Of a stretch of DNA of 40,209 bases, positions 116 to 36,645 are shown in pieces. The position numbers were made by a program, and so were the translations under genes. Each line of letters begins with the position of its first letter. Within the stretch, counting starts at the first letter, position 1. Below the pieces are notes generated by a model, which was given only the letters and a program-made list of their open reading frames with translations, made no database searches and was not told the origin of the DNA. Source of the DNA: a virus; the IMG/VR virus record IMGVR_UViG_3300027365_000030, positions 1-40,209 of that record; one strand, given 5' to 3'.

Positions 116-130
116 CATCACCTGGTGATG
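116..130. promoter_or_regulatory. Palindromic operator candidate at the promoter start site
   Basis: CATCACCTGGTGATG is a perfect 7+1+7 inverted repeat placed immediately after the -10 box at 106-111, over the predicted start site. That is a usual position for a repressor operator. The cognate regulator is not identifiable; the winged-helix protein at 588 is a candidate only because it lies nearby. Confidence 0.5.
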
Positions 131-169
131 TGAAAATCTTTCCTACACCATGTGAAAATCTTTCCTACA
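128..169 (+). repeat. Two 20-bp direct repeats with a 22-bp period
   Basis: ATGTGAAAATCTTTCCTACA occurs exactly at 128-147 and 150-169. The 22-bp period is about two helical turns, so bound proteins would sit on the same DNA face. Each copy ends in a TTCCTA box that reappears within the palindromes at 238-256 and 367-385. Iteron-like or operator-like binding sites are the likely role. Confidence 0.6.
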
Positions 170-237
170 TTTATAGGAACAAATGACACAGTAGTAAGAT
201 AGAAAGAGAAAGATAGATTTAAGAAAGAGCTTTACTT

Positions 238-256
238 ATAGGAATAATTTTCCTAT
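238..256. promoter_or_regulatory. TAGGAA/TTCCTA palindrome, copy 1
   Basis: ATAGGAATAATTTTCCTAT is a 7+5+7 inverted repeat. Its half site TTCCTA matches the direct repeats at 128-169, and the whole closely matches the palindrome at 367-385. It is a candidate dimer-binding site in the leader between the promoter at 82 and the gene at 417. It could instead act as an RNA hairpin. Confidence 0.5.
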
Positions 257-281
257 TCTTTTCTTTCTTGTGTTTGGTTGT

Positions 282-325
282 ATCGGTGCTAGGCTTTTAG
301 AGGTCGAAGACCGATATACATTTTT
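282..325 (+). other. Hairpin followed by a T-run in the left leader
   Basis: ATCGGT (282-287) pairs with ACCGAT (310-315), and a smaller GGTC/GACC hairpin lies within the 3' half (302-312). TTTTT follows at 320-325. This could end a short leader RNA started at about 118, but the long loop makes it a weak terminator candidate. No open frame of note lies between 62 and 417. Confidence 0.25.
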
Positions 326-366
326 GTTGGTGCAAGAAGCGAGAGCGAATTAGAAGAACGATTGTT

Positions 367-385
367 GTAGGAACAATTTTCCTAC
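367..385. promoter_or_regulatory. TAGGAA/TTCCTA palindrome, copy 2
   Basis: GTAGGAACAATTTTCCTAC is a 7+5+7 inverted repeat sharing the AATTTTCCTA core with the site at 238-256. It lies 32 bases before the ATG at 417, close to the ribosome site. A bound protein, or the same sequence as an RNA hairpin, could control the small gene that follows. Confidence 0.5.
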
Positions 386-416
386 ATTATGTGAACAATG
401 GTCATACGGAGGTGTT

Positions 417-539: not shown

Positions 540-587
540 AACTTTAATACTCAGGCTTACCGTAGAAAATCTAGTATGGAGGTAAGT

Positions 588-1085
588 ATGCAAGAAATAG
601 ATGAACAGTTTTACAAATTCCCTAAAATGCTGATGATGGCAGACGCTTATGTGAGCAGGAAAACGGGAGAGATTGTCAGGTTGACAGATGCAGACAAGAA
701 TGTGTATGTTGTGATGAAAGCTCGTAACGAGTTCTTTGACAACCATTACGACAAGCAATCGGACATTGCAGAAATGTGCAACCTGACAGTCAGGAAGGCC
801 GGAGGAGCCATCCGTGAATTTACAAAGCACGGCATCATTGAAAGCAGTAAGGTTTATTCAGGAGGGGAGCATAAGAATCTGAAGTACACCAAGATTCATT
901 GCTTGGAGCTTCTGAGGGCCGAGGGTGAGGGAGATAACCGGAAACACATACCAATAGGTATCCTCCCAGAGACAATCTGGCAGAAGGTTGAGAAGAAGGT
1001 TGTTGTACCTAAAGCCGCCCAACAGAAGAGTATTTATACGCCACCAGCACCAAACTGGGACGACGAAGAAGGATTACCATTTTAG
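588..1085 (+). CDS. Winged-helix DNA-binding protein with SSB-like acidic C-terminal tail
   Basis: The product is 165 aa. I chose ATG 588 because GGAGG at 578-582 is well spaced for it; ATG 576 is upstream of that site. Residues about 35-90 read like the helix-turn-helix region of phage replication/regulatory proteins (FFDNHYDKQSDIAEMCNLTV then a helix ending FTKHGIIES). A linker rich in P and K follows. The protein ends WDDEEGLPF, an acidic stretch plus Pro-Phe very like the bacterial SSB tip DDDIPF that recruits replication and repair proteins. A homologous domain with the same tail is fused to a GIY-YIG nuclease at 35791-36531. A replication-initiation or origin-associated role is inferred from the tail and from the box-rich DNA upstream. 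A plain transcription regulator is the alternative. Confidence 0.7.
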   Translation: MQEIDEQFYKFPKMLMMADAYVSRKTGEIVRLTDADKNVYVVMKARNEFFDNHYDKQSDIAEMCNLTVRKAGGAIREFTKHGIIESSKVYSGGEHKNLKYTKIHCLELLRAEGEGDNRKHIPIGILPETIWQKVEKKVVVPKAAQQKSIYTPPAPNWDDEEGLPF

Positions 1086-7670: not shown

Positions 7671-8849
7671 ATGGGACGTAAGAAAGGTTCCTCCATTGGT
7701 CCTAAAGTTGATCTAACGGGCAATGTTTACGGAAAACTAACAGTCACTGCATTTGCGGGAAAACAATACTACCCCTCAGGTGAATCGAAATACACTTGGA
7801 AATGTCAATGCGAGTGTGGTAATGAAATTGTAACCACAGGGAACGCTCTTAGAACTGGTAATACGTCCAGTTGTAGGCAGTGTATTTATATTGATATTAC
7901 AAATCAAAGGTTCGGAAAACTTGTTGCCATTGAACGACAAACTTACCGAGATGAAGCCGGTAAGGCTAAAGCCAAGTGGAAGTGCATATGTGATTGTGGT
8001 AATACGCACTATGTTAGCTATGGTAATCTTTTTCACAAGAATGTAGTCTCTTGCGGTTGCAGATTCTTTGAGATTCAAGAGCAAGATTTTGAGAGAAGAA
8101 AATCAGAACTCCTTGGACGGATTAGGGAGGTTCATGGAGATAGGTACCAATACAACCTTGACTCATTTGTGAATGTTAGTAGCAAAATAAAAATCTTCTG
8201 CGAAGAGCATGGAGAGTTTAGTCAAAGAGTCGCAGACCATGTGTTTGGTGGTACTGGTTGTAGGGAGTGCTTCTTCGATAGTCGCAGATTAGGTGTGGAT
8301 GGCTTTAAAGAAGCATCTACGAAAGTACACGGCACCAAGTATGACTACTCCCTAATTACCGAGTATTATAGAAATAGTGATATTGTTGAAATAATCTGCC
8401 CAGAGCACGGAAAGTTTTCACAATCAGCTCATAGTCATTTAGCTGGTTCGGGTTGCCCTTCTTGTAGTTCTGATCTTCGTCGTTGGGGCTATCGAAACTA
8501 TTGCATTAACAATGAAGAGTTTGGACAGGCGACAGGCAGCGTATATCTATTAGAGTTGACAAATAAAGAAGGGGACAGATTTCTTAAAGTTGGCGTTTCA
8601 AGATCAATAGGTAATAGGTTATCTGTCTATCGTAGGGATGGTCTTGAGCCAAAACTTCTGACGCTGATAGGGTCAATAACAGCCCTCAAAAGCGCAGAAA
8701 TTGAAATTAAAATTCTCCGAGACATTAAGAAAAAACAACTCCGTCATATCCCTCGGATTAAGTTTGCTGGCTGGACAGAATGTGCAAAGATAGAGGCTAA
8801 GGAATATCTTATCTCTGTTTTCGAGGAGGTGAGAAGAAGTGTCAGTTAA
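7671..8849 (+). CDS. Zinc-ribbon/DUF723-like mobile nuclease with GIY-YIG-like C-terminus
   Basis: The 392-aa protein is a probable homing endonuclease. Residues about 44-72 and 103-130 are two similar zinc modules (WKCQCECGN...CRQC and WKCICDCGN...SCGC). Residues about 145-265 hold two copies of a domain with the pattern VHGxxYxYxL...ICxEHGxFxQ...HxxGxGCxxC, which I know as DUF723 of phage mobile nucleases. Residues about 290-385 (SVYLLELTN, FLKVGVSRSIGNRL) resemble the T5orf172 branch of GIY-YIG nucleases. The gene ends 11 bases inside the terminase gene and carries that gene's ribosome site, a typical free-standing position beside a conserved target. The zinc modules also resemble those of the enzyme at 19490. 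The GIY-YIG assignment is moderately sure. Confidence 0.72.
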   Translation: MGRKKGSSIGPKVDLTGNVYGKLTVTAFAGKQYYPSGESKYTWKCQCECGNEIVTTGNALRTGNTSSCRQCIYIDITNQRFGKLVAIERQTYRDEAGKAKAKWKCICDCGNTHYVSYGNLFHKNVVSCGCRFFEIQEQDFERRKSELLGRIREVHGDRYQYNLDSFVNVSSKIKIFCEEHGEFSQRVADHVFGGTGCRECFFDSRRLGVDGFKEASTKVHGTKYDYSLITEYYRNSDIVEIICPEHGKFSQSAHSHLAGSGCPSCSSDLRRWGYRNYCINNEEFGQATGSVYLLELTNKEGDRFLKVGVSRSIGNRLSVYRRDGLEPKLLTLIGSITALKSAEIEIKILRDIKKKQLRHIPRIKFAGWTECAKIEAKEYLISVFEEVRRSVS

Positions 8850-19489: not shown

Positions 19490-20383
19490 GTGGCTAAAGA
19501 AATTGATGTGAAAATAGGTGATAAGTTCAACCGCTGGGAAGTGATCTCGGAAATATTCTATAAGACCTTCCCTAGCGGAGCTAAGGCTAAATTCATTAAC
19601 TGTCGATGCGAATGCGGAACCTGCTCCACACTACGACTGGGGACTTTAACTAGTCCAACCAAGCCCAGCCTTTCTTGTGGATGCGTCCGCAGGGAAGCGA
19701 TGGGTAAGACACGAAAGTTTCCCCAAATAGGTGAAGTTTTTGAAAAGTTGACAGTCATCTCGGAAGGCTACCGTAAGAATGTTAGGTCTTGGGTGACCGT
19801 CCAATGCTCTTGTGGCGGTGAAGCATTTGATGTAAGGGTGGACCATCTCCGGAACGGCAACACTGGTTCATGTGGATGTTTACAAAGAGAGGCGGTTAGC
19901 CAAGCCCATACAACTCACGGGATGAGTGGAACTTCTGCATATAACTCTTGGCAAGCTATGAAAGACCGCTGCAACAACCCAAACAACATCCGTTGGGACA
20001 GGTATGGAGGGCGTGGTATTGCGTATCCTACAGAGTGGGAGACTTTCCTAGGATTTTGGGAGGATATGTCTGAAGGTTGGTTTGAAGGTGCCGATATTGA
20101 CAGAATCAAGTTCGACGAGTCTTATTCAAAAGATAATTGTCGGTGGGTTAATAGAGATGTCGGCAATCACAACAAATCTAAATCTGAAGGGACATCTTCT
20201 TACAAGGGTGTTTATTACGACTCTGCAAGAGATAGATGGACGGCTCGGCTCAATAGAAATTTTGAGATTTTACTCCAGAAAAGATTTTACACCGAATTCG
20301 AGGCGGCTCTTGCTTATGACAACATGTCAGAGGAAGTTTATGGAGATCGTCCAAATCAAACAAACCGGGATGATCCCGCATGA
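19490..20383 (+). CDS. HNH homing endonuclease with zinc ribbons and AP2 domain
   Basis: The start is GTG 19490, after AAGGAG (19479-19484), with an ATG-less N-terminus MAKEIDVKIGDKFNRW; the product is 297 aa. Residues about 42-66 and 105-132 are two zinc modules (CRCECG...SCGC and CSCGG...SCGC) similar to those in the enzyme at 7671. Residues about 150-225 carry the AP2-linked HNH nuclease region (YNSWQAMKDRCNNPNN, YGGRGI, DRIKFDESYSKDNCRWV). The C-terminal 60 residues form an AP2 DNA-binding domain (SSYKGVYYDSARDRWTARL, FEAALAYDNMSEEVYG). It separates sheath from tube, genes that are normally adjacent, so it is an inserted free-standing mobile gene. Confidence 0.87.
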   Translation: MAKEIDVKIGDKFNRWEVISEIFYKTFPSGAKAKFINCRCECGTCSTLRLGTLTSPTKPSLSCGCVRREAMGKTRKFPQIGEVFEKLTVISEGYRKNVRSWVTVQCSCGGEAFDVRVDHLRNGNTGSCGCLQREAVSQAHTTHGMSGTSAYNSWQAMKDRCNNPNNIRWDRYGGRGIAYPTEWETFLGFWEDMSEGWFEGADIDRIKFDESYSKDNCRWVNRDVGNHNKSKSEGTSSYKGVYYDSARDRWTARLNRNFEILLQKRFYTEFEAALAYDNMSEEVYGDRPNQTNRDDPA

Positions 20384-22568: not shown

Positions 22569-24461
22569 GTGGAAATTGCCAAGTATACAGTTGGAGTAGA
22601 TTTTAATCTTAAGTGGAAGCAGCTAGATAAGAACCTAAAACTTCTTGAAAAGAAACTAGCTAAATTCTCTGCTGGGAAACTTGCTTTCTCAATTGATCGC
22701 TTTGTTGTTGATCAGCGTAAGTTAAACATTGTCCTCGGTAATGCTCTAGACCGAGCCAGCATGACAACTGCTTTCTCAATTGATCGCTTTGTTGTTGATC
22801 AAGCAAGCCTTACCCGTCAAATGACAAGAGCTATGAAGAATGCTGCTAGAGCGGCAAGCTCCCAAGCAGATATCACCCCAAACGTAAATGGTCGCGGTGG
22901 TATTAGCACAAGACAGGCGGGTGTAGCTGGTGGTGTAGGTGGATTTACCGCTCGTGCTTATATGCCGCTTGTTGCTCTTGCTGGTGGCGGATATGGTCTT
23001 GGTGCTCTTAATCGTCGTAACCAAGAGATTGTTTCGGCTCAGCTACAGACTTCAGCCATTGTTCAACAAGCTGGCGGTAATGCTGCTCAGGGAACAGAGG
23101 CTTTTGATTGGCTTAGGGCACAAGGGGAACGAGTAGGTTTCAACTGGCTTGAGGCTATTCCTGATTACAACAAACTGATTTCCGGCCTGGCTGGTGCGGG
23201 AATGACAGTTGAGCAAAGTCAGGGAGTTTTTCAAGGCTTCTCTGAATTGGCTCGTGTTAATAAGCTTGACCGCACTTCTCAGAATCGTTTGTTTCGGGCG
23301 CTGAGTCAAGTGGCTGGTAAGAACCAGTTGATGTCAGAAGAACTTACCGGACAGATTGCTGAAGCTCTTCCTGGGGGTGTTGCTGTCTTTGCTGAAGCAT
23401 ACCAACGTAAGCTTGCTGCGGAGGGACGTGGGGGCGGCAAAACTGGAAGCGAGGCAATTCAAGAACTTCGCAGCGCAATGGAGCGGCGTGAGGTCAAAGG
23501 TGATATTCTTCTGTATGCTGGGCAACGTGCCGGGGAGATGGCACAACCCGGTCTGACTGCGGCACAAAAAGCGTCACAAGCTGAGCAAGCAAGATTTCAG
23601 AATGCTTACAACCAATTAGCAATGGTGGCAAGTAATGCTGGTGTTGAAAGTGGTTTTGCTCGCCTGTTTAGAGCAATGGCCGATGGTGCCCGAGAGGCTG
23701 GCCCTCTGGTTGAATCATTAGCCAAAGGCTTTGATGAGATAACTAAATATGTCTCCGTAGCCATGCTTAGCTTTCAGTCACTGCAAAGATTCTTTCAGGG
23801 TCGAGATAGCTTCCTCGGTGACAAACTCTTCCCAGATAAGGAGACAAGAAGTAAAGCTCTTCTTTGGTTGGAATCTACTAAACAAGCTTTTACAGAAGTC
23901 AACACCCTGTTGGGGAACTCTATTACTGGTTGGCAACAGCTTTTGGGAACTTTAGAATCTAGTTCCGTACTAGATCGCCTTATGACTGCAATGTCTACCA
24001 TCTCAAACAGTGCAGGGGCATTGAATGCTTTAGTTGAGGGTGATTTTGGAAAAGCTGGAGAGATGGCTGCTGAAGCAGGTAAGAGGTATGCCAACACGCT
24101 GACGGCCCCAGGAAGGGCAGGCGTAAATGCTGCTCTGAGGGGAGGTACAAGGCTGCTGGAAGCTATTGATCCGAGAGTAGATGTTGGGTCAACCGTACCA
24201 CCACAACTTAGTGGGTTCAGTGTAACAGAAGATTGGATTACTCAACAAAAAATACAAAGACAGTTAGCAGCCCAGCAAGCAGCTAAAGAGGGTTATCCGA
24301 ATCCAGTAGGGATTTTCCCGATGGACAAGCAGGCTGGACAAGTTACTGCAACTTTCAATATTTACGATGCAACCAATCCAGATAAGGTTGGGGAGGTTGT
24401 TCGTATTAAGCTTGAAGACATGTTTAAGGCCGTTAATGCCGAAAACCCAGAATTAGAATAA
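22569..24461 (+). CDS. Tail tape measure protein
   Basis: The 630-aa product starts at GTG 22569 after GAAGGTAA. Tape measure proteins fix tail length at about 0.15 nm per residue, which would predict a tail near 95 nm. Residues about 150-270 match the phage tape-measure N-terminal domain (AIVQQAGGNAAQGTEAFDWL, GVFQGFSELARVNKLD, MSEELTGQIAEALPGGVAVF). A hydrophobic Gly-rich segment near residue 130 could insert in a membrane at DNA ejection. The N-terminal 75 residues contain FSIDRFVVDQ twice, encoded by an exact 33-bp repeat. The last 60 residues (ATFNIYDATNPDKVGEVVRIKLEDMFKAV) are a typical C-terminus for this class. Confidence 0.9.
   Translation: MEIAKYTVGVDFNLKWKQLDKNLKLLEKKLAKFSAGKLAFSIDRFVVDQRKLNIVLGNALDRASMTTAFSIDRFVVDQASLTRQMTRAMKNAARAASSQADITPNVNGRGGISTRQAGVAGGVGGFTARAYMPLVALAGGGYGLGALNRRNQEIVSAQLQTSAIVQQAGGNAAQGTEAFDWLRAQGERVGFNWLEAIPDYNKLISGLAGAGMTVEQSQGVFQGFSELARVNKLDRTSQNRLFRALSQVAGKNQLMSEELTGQIAEALPGGVAVFAEAYQRKLAAEGRGGGKTGSEAIQELRSAMERREVKGDILLYAGQRAGEMAQPGLTAAQKASQAEQARFQNAYNQLAMVASNAGVESGFARLFRAMADGAREAGPLVESLAKGFDEITKYVSVAMLSFQSLQRFFQGRDSFLGDKLFPDKETRSKALLWLESTKQAFTEVNTLLGNSITGWQQLLGTLESSSVLDRLMTAMSTISNSAGALNALVEGDFGKAGEMAAEAGKRYANTLTAPGRAGVNAALRGGTRLLEAIDPRVDVGSTVPPQLSGFSVTEDWITQQKIQRQLAAQQAAKEGYPNPVGIFPMDKQAGQVTATFNIYDATNPDKVGEVVRIKLEDMFKAVNAENPELE
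22682..22801 (+). repeat. 33-bp exact tandem-type repeat in the tape measure gene
   Basis: A 33-bp sequence beginning TGCTTTCTCAATTGATCG occurs exactly at 22682-22714 and 22769-22801. The spacing is 87 bases (29 codons), so the reading frame is kept and FSIDRFVVDQ is encoded twice. Flanking DNA is not repeated, which suggests recent copying or strong selection on the peptide. Confidence 0.9.
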
Positions 24462-33300: not shown

Positions 33301-33481
33301 AGTGCATACAACGCCAGATAGTCTTCTTGTTGATCCTTGTGTAGCTAAAGAAGCTGGATGGTCTGTAAGGAGTTTATCAAAAGCCTATATTACCAACACC
33401 ATGTGTATAGGAAAGTATAGGCTTTTATTAGATAAACAGAGAAAATACAAAGACCAGATTCTAAACCTATATCAAAAATAG
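33203..33481 (+). CDS. Rz1-like outer-membrane spanin lipoprotein
   Basis: The 92-aa product starts within the Rz-like gene in the +1 relative frame. The signal peptide and lipobox are MRWTLTLLCLMSLWSC with Cys21, so it is processed by signal peptidase II and lipid-anchored in the outer membrane. About 40 residues after the lipobox the protein has an extended C-terminus, VRSLSKAYITNTMCIGKYRLLLDKQRKYKDQILNLYQK. It is longer than lambda Rz1. The same extension occurs a second time, diverged, at 34193-34318 beyond the inserted HNH gene. Its end overlaps the end of that HNH gene by ten bases, in convergent orientation. Confidence 0.87.
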   Translation: MKHSLMRWTLTLLCLMSLWSCSTKPIETQYRDRVHTTPDSLLVDPCVAKEAGWSVRSLSKAYITNTMCIGKYRLLLDKQRKYKDQILNLYQK

Positions 33482-34140
33482 AATCTAACAGTCTCTACAC
33501 GCTGTTGTAAGTCTTTTTCTATATTTGCTGCCACAGATAGTAAGTTTTCTGCTATCTTAATGTTAAAAGTTTGGCTCACAGATGGTTCAAACTCCCACCA
33601 CAATACATACTCACGAATAACTTCTACTTTTGCTAGTTGCCATGCGGCGTGTGCCTCCATTGCGGTAGCATACATACCCAAGTGTTTACGCGGCCCGCGT
33701 AAGGTTTGAACGGCTGCCCTGAAGGGTTTCTTAAGAAAATTTACCATGTCTTTCGAAATCTTGTCTTTAGACACACCAATTGGATATTCACCGCGAGCAG
33801 CCCCGCATGTCCCAAAGATACAGTTTATAGCATTTGGAACAAATGCGCAAGTCTGAGGACTATATTGAGTATTGTCTGGGTATAACAAGTCTTTATCCAA
33901 ACGCATACCTTGCCAGCGTTGGAGTTCCATCCAAGCTTTGAAGTTTGAGAATGTCAGCCATTCTTCACAAACTGTACAGTTTGAGTAGGTTGGTTGCTTT
34001 TGCTTAACCCTAGGACTGTAACACCTAGCAAGCATGTCAACCCAAGTGCGGTAAAATGGGCAGGTTTCTCTTTTACCGTTTACTAGGGGGTTTACTGGAT
34101 ATGCTGCATCATTCTTGCCCACATTTCGAACAAATTTCAT
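33472..34140 (-). CDS. HNH-family homing endonuclease inserted in the lysis region
   Basis: The 222-aa minus-strand product has AAGGAG before its ATG at 34140. It has the pattern CPFYRTWVDMLARCYS...PTYSNCTVCEEWLTFSNFKAWME...LDKDLLYPDNTQYSPQTCAFV, common to a family of free-standing phage HNH/AP2-associated nucleases. A basic C-terminal DNA-binding part with AHAAWQLAKVEVIREY follows. The enzyme at 35157-35780 is a close family member with the same blocks. It points against all neighbouring genes, has its own promoter (34197-34168), and is bracketed by two copies of the Rz1 C-terminus, so it is a recent insertion. Confidence 0.85.
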   Translation of the reverse strand: MKFVRNVGKNDAAYPVNPLVNGKRETCPFYRTWVDMLARCYSPRVKQKQPTYSNCTVCEEWLTFSNFKAWMELQRWQGMRLDKDLLYPDNTQYSPQTCAFVPNAINCIFGTCGAARGEYPIGVSKDKISKDMVNFLKKPFRAAVQTLRGPRKHLGMYATAMEAHAAWQLAKVEVIREYVLWWEFEPSVSQTFNIKIAENLLSVAANIEKDLQQRVETVRFYF

Positions 34141-35156: not shown

Positions 35157-35780
35157 TCACTCTTCAATCACATAGTTTTCGTAGCGTTCAATCAAAGCTT
35201 TAGCAACACGAGGGTCAGATTGTTCAGCAGCAAGAATTTTAGCTTGTTCAAGTTTAAAAGCAAGCCATGCTTTGTGAGCTTCGAGTTCTGTGTCGAAGAG
35301 TCCGAGATGTTTCTGCTTTCCTGATCCATCGCCACACAGCGCCTGAAATTTATTAACCCCTCTATGCCAGCAGACACCAATCATCAATCGCCCACGAGAA
35401 GCATTTCTTTCAGTTACGAACAAATTAACCTTCTTGTCCACAAAGACACAGGCACGGGGGCTGTATACTTCGTTACCTTGTAGCAACAGGTCTTTATCTA
35501 ATTGTTTTCCTTCCCAATCTTGCTTTTCCATCCAATGTTTAAAGTTTGAAAAGACAAGCCAGTCTTTACAGACAGAGCAGCCAATGTAGGTTGGATACTT
35601 TTCTTGCCACTTAGCGGAGTAGCACCGCCGAAGCATGTCTCTCCATTTACAGTAGAATGGACAAATCCACACAAGTTTCCGCTTTTGTTCACCGTTTTCA
35701 TAGTTGATCGTTTCACACTTTTCCACAGCATAATCTGCATCATTTATTCCAACACCATAGAGTAATTTCTTTTTCTTCAC
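35157..35780 (-). CDS. HNH-family homing endonuclease (relative of 33472)
   Basis: The 207-aa product starts at GTG 35780, six bases after AGGAGGT on the minus strand (the ribosome site within the 29-bp repeat). A longer frame reaching 35867 would overlap the upstream gene and lacks a site. The order of blocks matches the enzyme at 33472-34140: GVGINDADYAV, CPFYCKWRDMLRRCYS, PTYIGCSVCKDWLVFSNFKHWMEK, LDKDLLLQGNEVYSPRACVFV, then a C-terminal DNA-binding part (KQKHLGLFDTELEAHKAWLAFKLEQA) that recalls AP2-type tails. It lies last in the minus-strand block, directly after the GIY-YIG fusion gene. Confidence 0.85.
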   Translation of the reverse strand: MKKKKLLYGVGINDADYAVEKCETINYENGEQKRKLVWICPFYCKWRDMLRRCYSAKWQEKYPTYIGCSVCKDWLVFSNFKHWMEKQDWEGKQLDKDLLLQGNEVYSPRACVFVDKKVNLFVTERNASRGRLMIGVCWHRGVNKFQALCGDGSGKQKHLGLFDTELEAHKAWLAFKLEQAKILAAEQSDPRVAKALIERYENYVIEE

Positions 35781-35785
35781 AACAC

Positions 35786-35814
35786 ACCTCCTAAAATGGT
35801 AATCCTTCTTCGTC
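35786..35814 (-). repeat. 29-bp exact repeat, right copy (inverted partner at 1062-1090)
   Basis: Read on the minus strand it encodes DEEGLPF, the stop codon TAG of the GIY-YIG fusion gene and the AGGAGGT ribosome site of the next gene. It is identical to 1062-1090 on the plus strand, about 34.7 kb away. Confidence 0.9.
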
Positions 35815-36531
35815 ATTCCCTTGGTGGGGCCGAGGAGCCAAGGATTGAGATAGGATGCGAGTCCCAAACTCCTCTACAATACCGTGTTTATCCAAAACAC
35901 CAAATTGCAACTCTTCCATAATTCTATAAGTGTTGTACCTTTCGTTGAAAGTATTTTTGCTCTTAATCTCAAGGTAGCCACACTGCTTCAGAACTTGAAA
36001 GAGAGAGTGTACAGATTTCCTCACCGTAGCACAAGCCTTGGCTATATCTTCTTGTTTATCAAAATATTCCTCACCTCTTTCCTTGAAAAACTTGTAACGA
36101 TTTATAAAATATAACAACACCACCTTATTTGTATGGCTTATGCTGACGTAACTGCCATCCTTCAAGTTCTTTACGTGAGTCGCACGTATTACTGAATAAT
36201 AGCAAGGGAAGTGGGTGTCAACTTCCCGGTCATGCGGTACAGGCGCGTCGCCCACTATGAGAGACTTCACTTTCTCTTGTTTATGAAATCTGGCACTATA
36301 TCCACCACCTCTCGTGATATTATCTAAACTCAGACTTTGATCGGAGATACACTCCTTCTCCACCCTGTTTGCTTCTTCTACGTCCCAAGTCTCGTAGAAG
36401 ATATTCATGGTAATATCTTCGCCATAGTTTCTCTTATGATGACGAAGCCGCATCTCTGGGTTTTTAGTCAAGCCGATATAGAACACCTCTTTGTTTTCGA
36501 CTAACTGGTAAACATAGATAATTTTCTTCAC
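35791..36531 (-). CDS. GIY-YIG nuclease fused to winged-helix domain with SSB-like tail
   Basis: The 246-aa product starts at GTG 36531, after GAGGAAA. Residues 1-80 form a GIY-YIG nuclease domain: IIYVYQLVENKEVFYIGLTKNPEMRLRHHK carries the two Tyr motifs and the Arg helix, EANRVEKECI the Glu, and DNITRGGG the closing Asn. Residues about 105-190 align with the winged-helix protein at 588-1085 (FPCYYSVIRATHVKNLKDGS; NKVVLLYF..FF; FDKQEDIAKACATVRKSVHS; GYLEIKS). The protein ends GNDEEGLPF, the same SSB-like tip. So it appears to be a homing nuclease that has captured a replication/regulatory DNA-binding domain, or the reverse. The function of the fusion is unknown to me. Confidence 0.8.
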   Translation of the reverse strand: MKKIIYVYQLVENKEVFYIGLTKNPEMRLRHHKRNYGEDITMNIFYETWDVEEANRVEKECISDQSLSLDNITRGGGYSARFHKQEKVKSLIVGDAPVPHDREVDTHFPCYYSVIRATHVKNLKDGSYVSISHTNKVVLLYFINRYKFFKERGEEYFDKQEDIAKACATVRKSVHSLFQVLKQCGYLEIKSKNTFNERYNTYRIMEELQFGVLDKHGIVEEFGTRILSQSLAPRPHQGNDEEGLPF

Positions 36532-36589
36532 AAAGTTTCCTCATTAATCTGCGTCCTCTCTATCTACGGGGATCAAGGTTTATTTAAAT

Positions 36590-36622
36590 TTTAGTAACAG
36601 AACTAGCCCCGATTACGGGGCT
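36590..36622 (-). terminator. Hairpin after the glutaredoxin gene
   Basis: AGCCCCG and CGGGGCT (36605-36622) form a perfect 7-bp stem with a TAAT loop. On the minus strand AGTTCTGTTACT follows, a poor U-tract. It lies 24 bases beyond the glutaredoxin stop codon and before the GIY-YIG gene, so weak termination of the nrd transcript is likely. Confidence 0.5.
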
Positions 36623-36645
36623 ATAAAATGGGTTACACCGGAACC

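What the first reader, a model, noticed from the sequence alone, without database searches (positions are those of the whole stretch)
35786..36531. GIY-YIG nuclease fused to a winged-helix domain with an SSB-mimic tail
The N-terminal 80 residues are a GIY-YIG nuclease. The rest is homologous to the stand-alone winged-helix protein at 588-1085, including the acidic end DEEGLPF, which resembles the SSB tip DDDIPF. A homing-type nuclease joined to a replication-linked DNA-binding domain that may recruit SSB-interacting host proteins is an arrangement I do not know as described. It could target the nuclease to replication origins or forks, or represent capture of a mobile nuclease by a regulator.
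Basis: partly seen in the sequence, partly recalled or inferred. Interest (0 to 1): 0.82.

Follow-up and report, generated by a model that had tools for sequence, protein, structure and literature searches.

The report
Phage nuclease fused to origin-binding domain
A phage gene joins a DNA-cutting domain to a DNA-binding domain of the kind that starts replication; this is the design of a known phage weapon (Odn and Gp5 of cholera phage ICP1) that cuts a rival's replication origin, and the only unexplained part is its conserved tail, which looks like the tip of the bacterial SSB protein.

Summary
Residues 1-80 are GIY-YIG, about 105-210 are a winged helix, and the end is DEEGLPF. The claim that the arrangement is undescribed does not hold. 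[quoted passage not shown] The whole protein aligns colinearly with ICP1 Gp5 (nuclease first, RepA_N domain second), already proposed as a second Odn-type nuclease. Two results are new. (1) Five related phage contigs carry an unfused winged-helix gene at the same site. In the nearest, flanking DNA matches from 36626 outward and from inside the tail codons (35814) onward; everything between is replaced. (2) The SSB-tip-like tail is a family trait: in 339 ORFs from the loci examined, all 13 that end in PF are winged-helix genes of this family, with several different acidic tails. Most likely this is an origin- or operator-directed, homing-type nuclease. Its target (satellite or sibling phage) and the tail's partner are not shown.

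The parts
35791..36531 (-). Fusion gene, 246 aa: GIY-YIG domain + winged helix + acidic PF tail
   Evidence: ORF list and translation; Pfam; AF2 model mean pLDDT 67
36292..36531 (-). GIY-YIG nuclease domain, residues 1-80; motif residues Y6-V-Y8, Y18-I-G20, R28, H31/H32, E58, N71 all present
   Evidence: PF01541 and PF10544 above cut-off; predicted beta-beta-alpha-beta-alpha order; weak match to SLX1; residue numbering read
35902..36219 (-). Winged-helix (RepA_N-like / DUF6945) domain, about residues 105-210
   Evidence: PF22182 29.8 bits; only PDB sequence match below E 0.01 is 4RO3, E 6e-4; Foldseek top hit 4RO3, RepA_N initiators 4PQL, 4PT7, 5KBJ and DnaD further down
35794..35814 (-). C-terminal tail DEEGLPF (residues 240-246)
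35815..36625 (-). Segment replaced relative to related phages L031/L033/L036: their unfused winged-helix allele and leader are absent here
   Evidence: blastn blocks: 36626 outward 98.5-99.2% identical, 35814 and below 78-89% identical, only one short 64-nt match between; exact joints
35786..35814 (-). 29-nt stretch (tail codons + stop + Shine-Dalgarno) identical to 1062-1090 on the + strand; one joint of the replacement lies here
576..1085 (+). Stand-alone winged-helix paralogue with the same DEEGLPF tail (ATG at 576; ATG at 588 also possible)
   Evidence: best PDB match also 4RO3, E 0.018
1062..1082 (+). DEEGLPF codons of the paralogue
35157..35780 (-). HNH homing endonuclease gene directly downstream; its Shine-Dalgarno (TAGGAGG) overlaps the stop codon of the fusion gene
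   Evidence: phrog_953 1e-89; GTG start by comparison with L049

Best explanation
The gene encodes a directed endonuclease of the Odn/Gp5 type. The C-terminal RepA_N-like winged helix binds repeats at a replication origin or operator belonging to a related replicon, and the N-terminal GIY-YIG domain cuts the DNA there. In this phage the gene has replaced, exactly and in frame, an ordinary unfused winged-helix gene that sits between glutaredoxin and an HNH homing endonuclease in sister phages. One joint lies in the conserved tail codons. A nuclease that cuts the resident allele and is copied in during repair would leave this pattern (homing), and the same protein would also attack any satellite or co-infecting phage that uses similar sites. 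Shown here: domain identities, colinear homology to Gp5, the allelic replacement, the family-wide tail. Inferred: DNA binding, cleavage, the target, and the tail's partner.
For: Both domains pass curated Pfam cut-offs. Odn scores 4.9e-35 and Gp5 1.5e-30 against the same PF22182 model. Colinear BLASTP to Gp5 over both domains: E=6e-8, 23%, P0001 4-168 on Gp5 1-180. phrog_14053, hit by P0001 residues 5-84, is Gp5 itself (613.8 bits). Foldseek against viral models ranks ICP1 ORF5 4th over 230 columns, with Odn and the putative coliphage Odn (Mt1B1_P17) also listed. GIY-YIG motif residues including R28 and E58 are intact. Five of five related contigs carry the unfused allele (44% best tblastn segment, 47-48% in the alignment of the C-terminal part), with exact boundaries. 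Published: Odn cuts the PLE origin, needs iterons, and a catalytic Glu mutant is inactive (PMC8263062).
Against: No satellite or bacterial locus with a matching winged helix was found (genome-contig scans), so no target is identified. Identity of the winged helix to resident alleles and paralogues is only 22-48%, so it may not bind the same sites. The fused form is known from this one contig; no second copy was found. The GIY-YIG part modelled alone is low confidence (pLDDT 54) and gave no GIY-YIG fold match. No relative was found from which the GIY-YIG domain came.
Confidence: 0.66

Rival explanations
1. A plain selfish homing endonuclease: the winged helix only serves to find the unfused allele (or its leader) in co-infecting sister phages, and there is no anti-satellite role. 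(This overlaps with the best explanation, of which it is the narrower homing-only version.)
For: Exact allelic replacement with nearly identical flanks in L031/L036; an HNH homing gene lies immediately downstream and four more homing-type genes lie elsewhere in the window; I-TevI is the textbook case of GIY-YIG + DNA-binding module (established knowledge; also PMC10448857).
Against: The winged helix is of replication-initiator type rather than the usual homing modules, and the closest described homologues (Odn shown, Gp5 proposed) act against satellites.
Confidence: 0.4
2. A regulator or initiator that merely gained a GIY-YIG appendage: its main job is still to bind the phage's own origin or operator, with the nuclease silent or used for autorepression as in I-TevI.
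For: It occupies the site of a resident winged-helix gene, keeps the full length of that protein and its tail.
Against: Catalytic residues look intact; the phage keeps a separate stand-alone paralogue; a cutter of its own origin would be lethal, which argues for altered specificity rather than unchanged regulation.
Confidence: 0.17
3. The tail is conserved for DNA reasons only: it is a recombination patch and carries the stop codon and Shine-Dalgarno of the next gene, and is not a protein motif.
For: 29 nt identical between two divergent genes, including synonymous sites; the joint of the replacement falls there; a T5orf172 ORF can start inside the tail codons in L005 and L032.
Against: Relatives keep an acidic PF end with different DNA and different residues: DDSGPF, DMEDPF, DDNDPPF, DDGYPF, DQDEIPF, DQDDVPF, EDWNDVPF.
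Confidence: 0.2
4. Assembly artefact joining two phages.
For: Seen once only.
Against: Intact ORF with its own Shine-Dalgarno, matching flanks on both sides, local G+C of 0.41 like its neighbours; the joint is at a gene end rather than random.
Confidence: 0.06

Closest known systems
ICP1 Gp5 (ORF5, phrog_14053)
   Same: Nuclease domain first, RepA_N/DUF6945 winged helix second; colinear alignment E=6e-8; structure match over 230 columns
   Different: Gp5 is 261 aa, scores only as T5orf172, ends in LLRGKQS without an acidic PF tail, and matches a PLE-like element's repA (PMC10448857); P0001 also scores as canonical GIY-YIG, carries DEEGLPF and sits at a resident winged-helix locus
ICP1 Odn (Gp88), origin-directed nuclease
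   Same: Same two domain families; its DUF6945 domain matches 4RO3
   Different: Domain order reversed (winged helix first); no tail; cleavage shown by experiment (PMC8263062)
PLE RepA N-terminal domain (PDB 4RO3)
   Same: Best sequence and fold match of the winged helix
   Different: RepA is an initiator without a nuclease; identity about 20%
I-TevI and other GIY-YIG homing endonucleases
   Same: GIY-YIG module plus separate DNA-binding module (established knowledge)
   Different: I-TevI uses a zinc finger linker and HTH-type module, not a RepA_N winged helix
SSB C-terminal tip (DDDIPF in E. coli)
   Same: Acidic residues followed by terminal Pro-Phe
   Different: Here on a winged-helix protein with no OB fold; binding to SSB partners untested

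Membership tests
GIY-YIG nuclease superfamily | Score over the curated Pfam cut-off | tested here: met
   PF01541 27.1 vs 22.6; PF10544 24 vs 20
GIY-YIG nuclease superfamily | GIY/YIG tyrosines, catalytic Arg and Glu in order | tested here: met
   Y8, Y18, R28, E58, N71 read from the sequence; I5-Y6, G20, R28, E58 shared with Gp5
GIY-YIG nuclease superfamily | Fold match to a solved GIY-YIG structure | tested here: inconclusive
   Expected element order in the model, but the low-confidence single-domain model matched no GIY-YIG entry
DUF6945 / PLE-RepA-type winged helix | Score over the curated Pfam cut-off | tested here: met
   29.8 vs 28 bits
DUF6945 / PLE-RepA-type winged helix | Fold of the RepA_N N-terminal domain | tested here: met
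   4RO3 first, E 1e-4; RepA_N initiators and DnaD also listed
RepA_N (PF06970) | Score over the PF06970 cut-off | tested here: not met
   No hit for P0001; paralogues and relatives 13.7-16.4 bits vs cut-off 30
Odn-type origin-directed nuclease | Nuclease and DUF6945 domain in one protein | tested here: met
Odn-type origin-directed nuclease | Winged helix closely similar to a satellite's initiator | tested here: inconclusive
   No such bacterial locus found in two pattern-based scans of one genome per species, which would miss most satellites; nearest known is 47-48% to a sister-phage gene
Odn-type origin-directed nuclease | Cuts an origin in an iteron-dependent way | not testable with these tools
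   needs purified protein
Homing endonuclease gene | Present/absent alleles with matching flanks | tested here: met
   Fused here, unfused in five relatives; boundaries at 36626 and 35814
Homing endonuclease gene | Cuts the allele lacking it and spreads by repair | not testable with these tools
   needs mixed infections and cleavage assay
SSB-tip mimic | C-terminal acidic stretch ending in Pro-Phe, conserved in relatives | tested here: met
   13 of 13 PF-ending ORFs in the sample are this family; absent in phiPMW, RYC, Vequintavirinae, Odn, Gp5
SSB-tip mimic | Binds an SSB-partner protein | not testable with these tools
   needs binding assay

The most novel reading that the evidence does not exclude
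A family of phage initiator-like winged-helix proteins carries a true SSB-tip mimic that draws the host's SSB-binding replication proteins to the phage's binding site, and the fusion protein keeps this tail so that cutting takes place where those proteins gather. The related phages examined lack a recognisable SSB gene, which would fit reliance on host partners.
Probability: 0.28. Interest if true: 0.72.

Novelty: new variant of a known kind. Interest (0 to 1): 0.52.

Why it matters
It adds another phage lineage in which a homing-type nuclease and a replication-initiator DNA-binding domain were joined, and shows the event caught between alleles: sister phages with the unfused gene and matching flanks. 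The conserved SSB-tip-like tail on phage relatives of the PLE RepA DNA-binding domain gives a concrete, testable candidate for how such proteins could contact replication machinery, a question left open for PLE RepA (PMC7145576).

Tried and rejected
Searches for a second fused copy failed: P0001 alone, its GIY-YIG part, and an alignment of its winged helix against viral contigs. Two scans of bacterial genomes for a satellite with the matching winged helix found nothing. Foldseek of the isolated GIY-YIG part failed because the single-sequence model was poor. I tried to reach the coliphage Odn proteins (Inny, Muut, Mt1B1_P17) and their satellites' RepA to see whether they carry the tail; the searches did not return those records. 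Direct and inverted repeats near the fusion gene gave no convincing iterons. Paper searches for a described SSB-tip mimic on a phage initiator returned nothing relevant by title and abstract; this covers open-access text only. An idea I consider possible but unproven is that the tail codons are themselves the homing site of the downstream nuclease genes.

Full report
Observation. The window is a 40,209-base virus record from a tailed phage with a contractile tail (sheath and baseplate genes). The ORF lies on the minus strand, 35791-36531, 246 aa, GTG start. Pfam places GIY-YIG (PF01541, 27.1 bits) and T5orf172 (PF10544, 24 bits) at the N-terminus and DUF6945 (PF22182, 29.8 bits) at 116-191, all over their curated cut-offs. 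The motif residues Y8, Y18, R28, E58 and N71 are in order. The AF2 model shows the beta-beta-alpha-beta-alpha order at 2-62 (block pLDDT 64-74), a better-predicted winged helix (block pLDDT about 76-94) and a disordered linker and tail. The winged helix matches the stand-alone protein at 576-1085 (E=4e-6).

What the winged helix is. The only PDB sequence match below E 0.01 is 4RO3 (E 6e-4), also the best fold match. Barth et al. identify 4RO3 as the N-terminal domain of RepA, the replication initiator of the Vibrio satellite PLE (PMC7145576). The paralogue at 576-1085 also has 4RO3 as best match (E 0.018). [quoted passage not shown] The older RepA_N model PF06970 is not met.

The arrangement is known. 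Odn joins a RepA_N domain to a T5orf172 nuclease, and cuts the PLE origin in an iteron-dependent way (PMC8263062). A second ICP1 protein, Gp5, and three coliphage proteins have the same domain content and are proposed to act likewise (PMC10448857). Gp5 has the nuclease first, as here. P0001 and Gp5 align colinearly across both domains (E=6e-8). phrog_14053, which P0001 hits, is Gp5 itself, and Foldseek against viral models lists ICP1 ORF5, ORF88 (Odn) and the Mt1B1_P17 protein.

An exact replacement. Five related contigs carry an unfused winged-helix gene at this site. It is 47-48% identical to residues from about 100 onward of P0001, has the same tail, and is followed by a homologous HNH gene. 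In L031/L049 it is preceded by a short ORF resembling a ribbon-helix-helix protein (family not tested). Against L031 the window is 98.5% identical from 36626 outward and 89% below 35814; against L033 99.2% and 78%. In L031 and L036 the 190 nt from the tail codons on are identical, and the match stops three bases before GAAGAAGG. So the segment 35815-36625 was swapped as a unit, with one joint just after glutaredoxin and the other inside the tail codons. The leader of the unfused allele (about 415 nt) is lost with it. The more distant relative L022/L043 has a different gene upstream, so the replacement boundaries rest on L031, L033 and L036.

The tail. Of 339 non-overlapping ORFs in 22 phage loci, 13 end in PF; all 13 are winged-helix genes of this family and all are acidic. 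The residues differ between lineages: DEEGLPF, DDSGPF, DMEDPF, DDNDPPF, DDGYPF, DQDEIPF, DQDDVPF, EDWNDVPF. This argues for selection on the protein end. But within the window's own phage group the tail DNA is nearly identical between divergent paralogues, overlaps the Shine-Dalgarno of the next gene, and hosts a recombination joint; DNA-level causes are therefore mixed in. The tail is absent in phiPMW, RYC, the short Vequintavirinae proteins, Odn and Gp5. Likeness to the SSB tip is a resemblance; no binding was tested. No SSB (PF00436) gene was found in four relatives, though divergent SSBs would be missed.

A recurrent pairing. Next to winged-helix genes of this family lie T5orf172 or HNH nuclease genes in L005 and L032 (overlapping frames), Aeromonas phages 4L372XY and PhAER-4, and the sister phages. 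The PhAER-4 neighbour was identified by its likeness to the 4L372XY one, not by a profile search. L005 also carries a wHTH-T5orf172 fusion in Odn order (its N-terminal domain hits other HTH models, not DUF6945). Such neighbourhoods could make fusions easy (inference).

Mechanism. Most likely the protein binds repeats at an origin or operator through the winged helix and cuts through GIY-YIG. Whether the main victim is a sister phage (homing) or a satellite is open. I found no satellite target. The replacement pattern slightly favours homing; the kinship with Odn favours anti-rival use. Both could hold.

Verdict. The tail conserved across phage initiator-like proteins is the part worth an experiment.

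Noticed in passing
window 128-386: Four palindrome-like sites (TGTAGGAACAATTTTCCTACA at 366-386 and variants at 129, 151, 237) upstream of the stand-alone winged-helix gene; three recur upstream of its orthologue in L019. Candidate operator or iterons.
   Followed up: partly
window 33472-34140, 35157-35780, 1840-2790, 7671-8849, 19490-20383: Five homing-type endonuclease genes (HNH or related) in 40 kb besides the fusion gene.
   Followed up: no
L005:4815-5492: wHTH-T5orf172 fusion in Odn order, upstream of a tailed winged-helix gene whose tail codons contain the start of another T5orf172 ORF.
   Followed up: partly
L032:929-2180: Third winged-helix paralogue of G001, ending WVDDEEGLPF, with a T5orf172 ORF that can start inside the tail codons.
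   Followed up: partly
L067, ORF at 1471: ICP1 Gp4, just upstream of Gp5, also matches the winged-helix profile (E 1e-7) but shows no obvious nuclease domain by eye.
   Followed up: no
L049:3772-4005: In the unfused allele a short ORF resembling a ribbon-helix-helix protein overlaps the winged-helix start; it is gone in the window.
   Followed up: no
L028, L029, L034, L035, L037, L039, L040; L038: Unrelated phage proteins also end in this way: DEEGFPF on a protein that looks like a RecB-type nuclease (seven contigs) and DEEGLPF on one that looks like a DUF669-type protein (L038); families judged by eye only.
   Followed up: no
window 22682-22801: Exact direct repeat of about 33 nt, spacing 87, in the tape-measure gene.
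   Followed up: no
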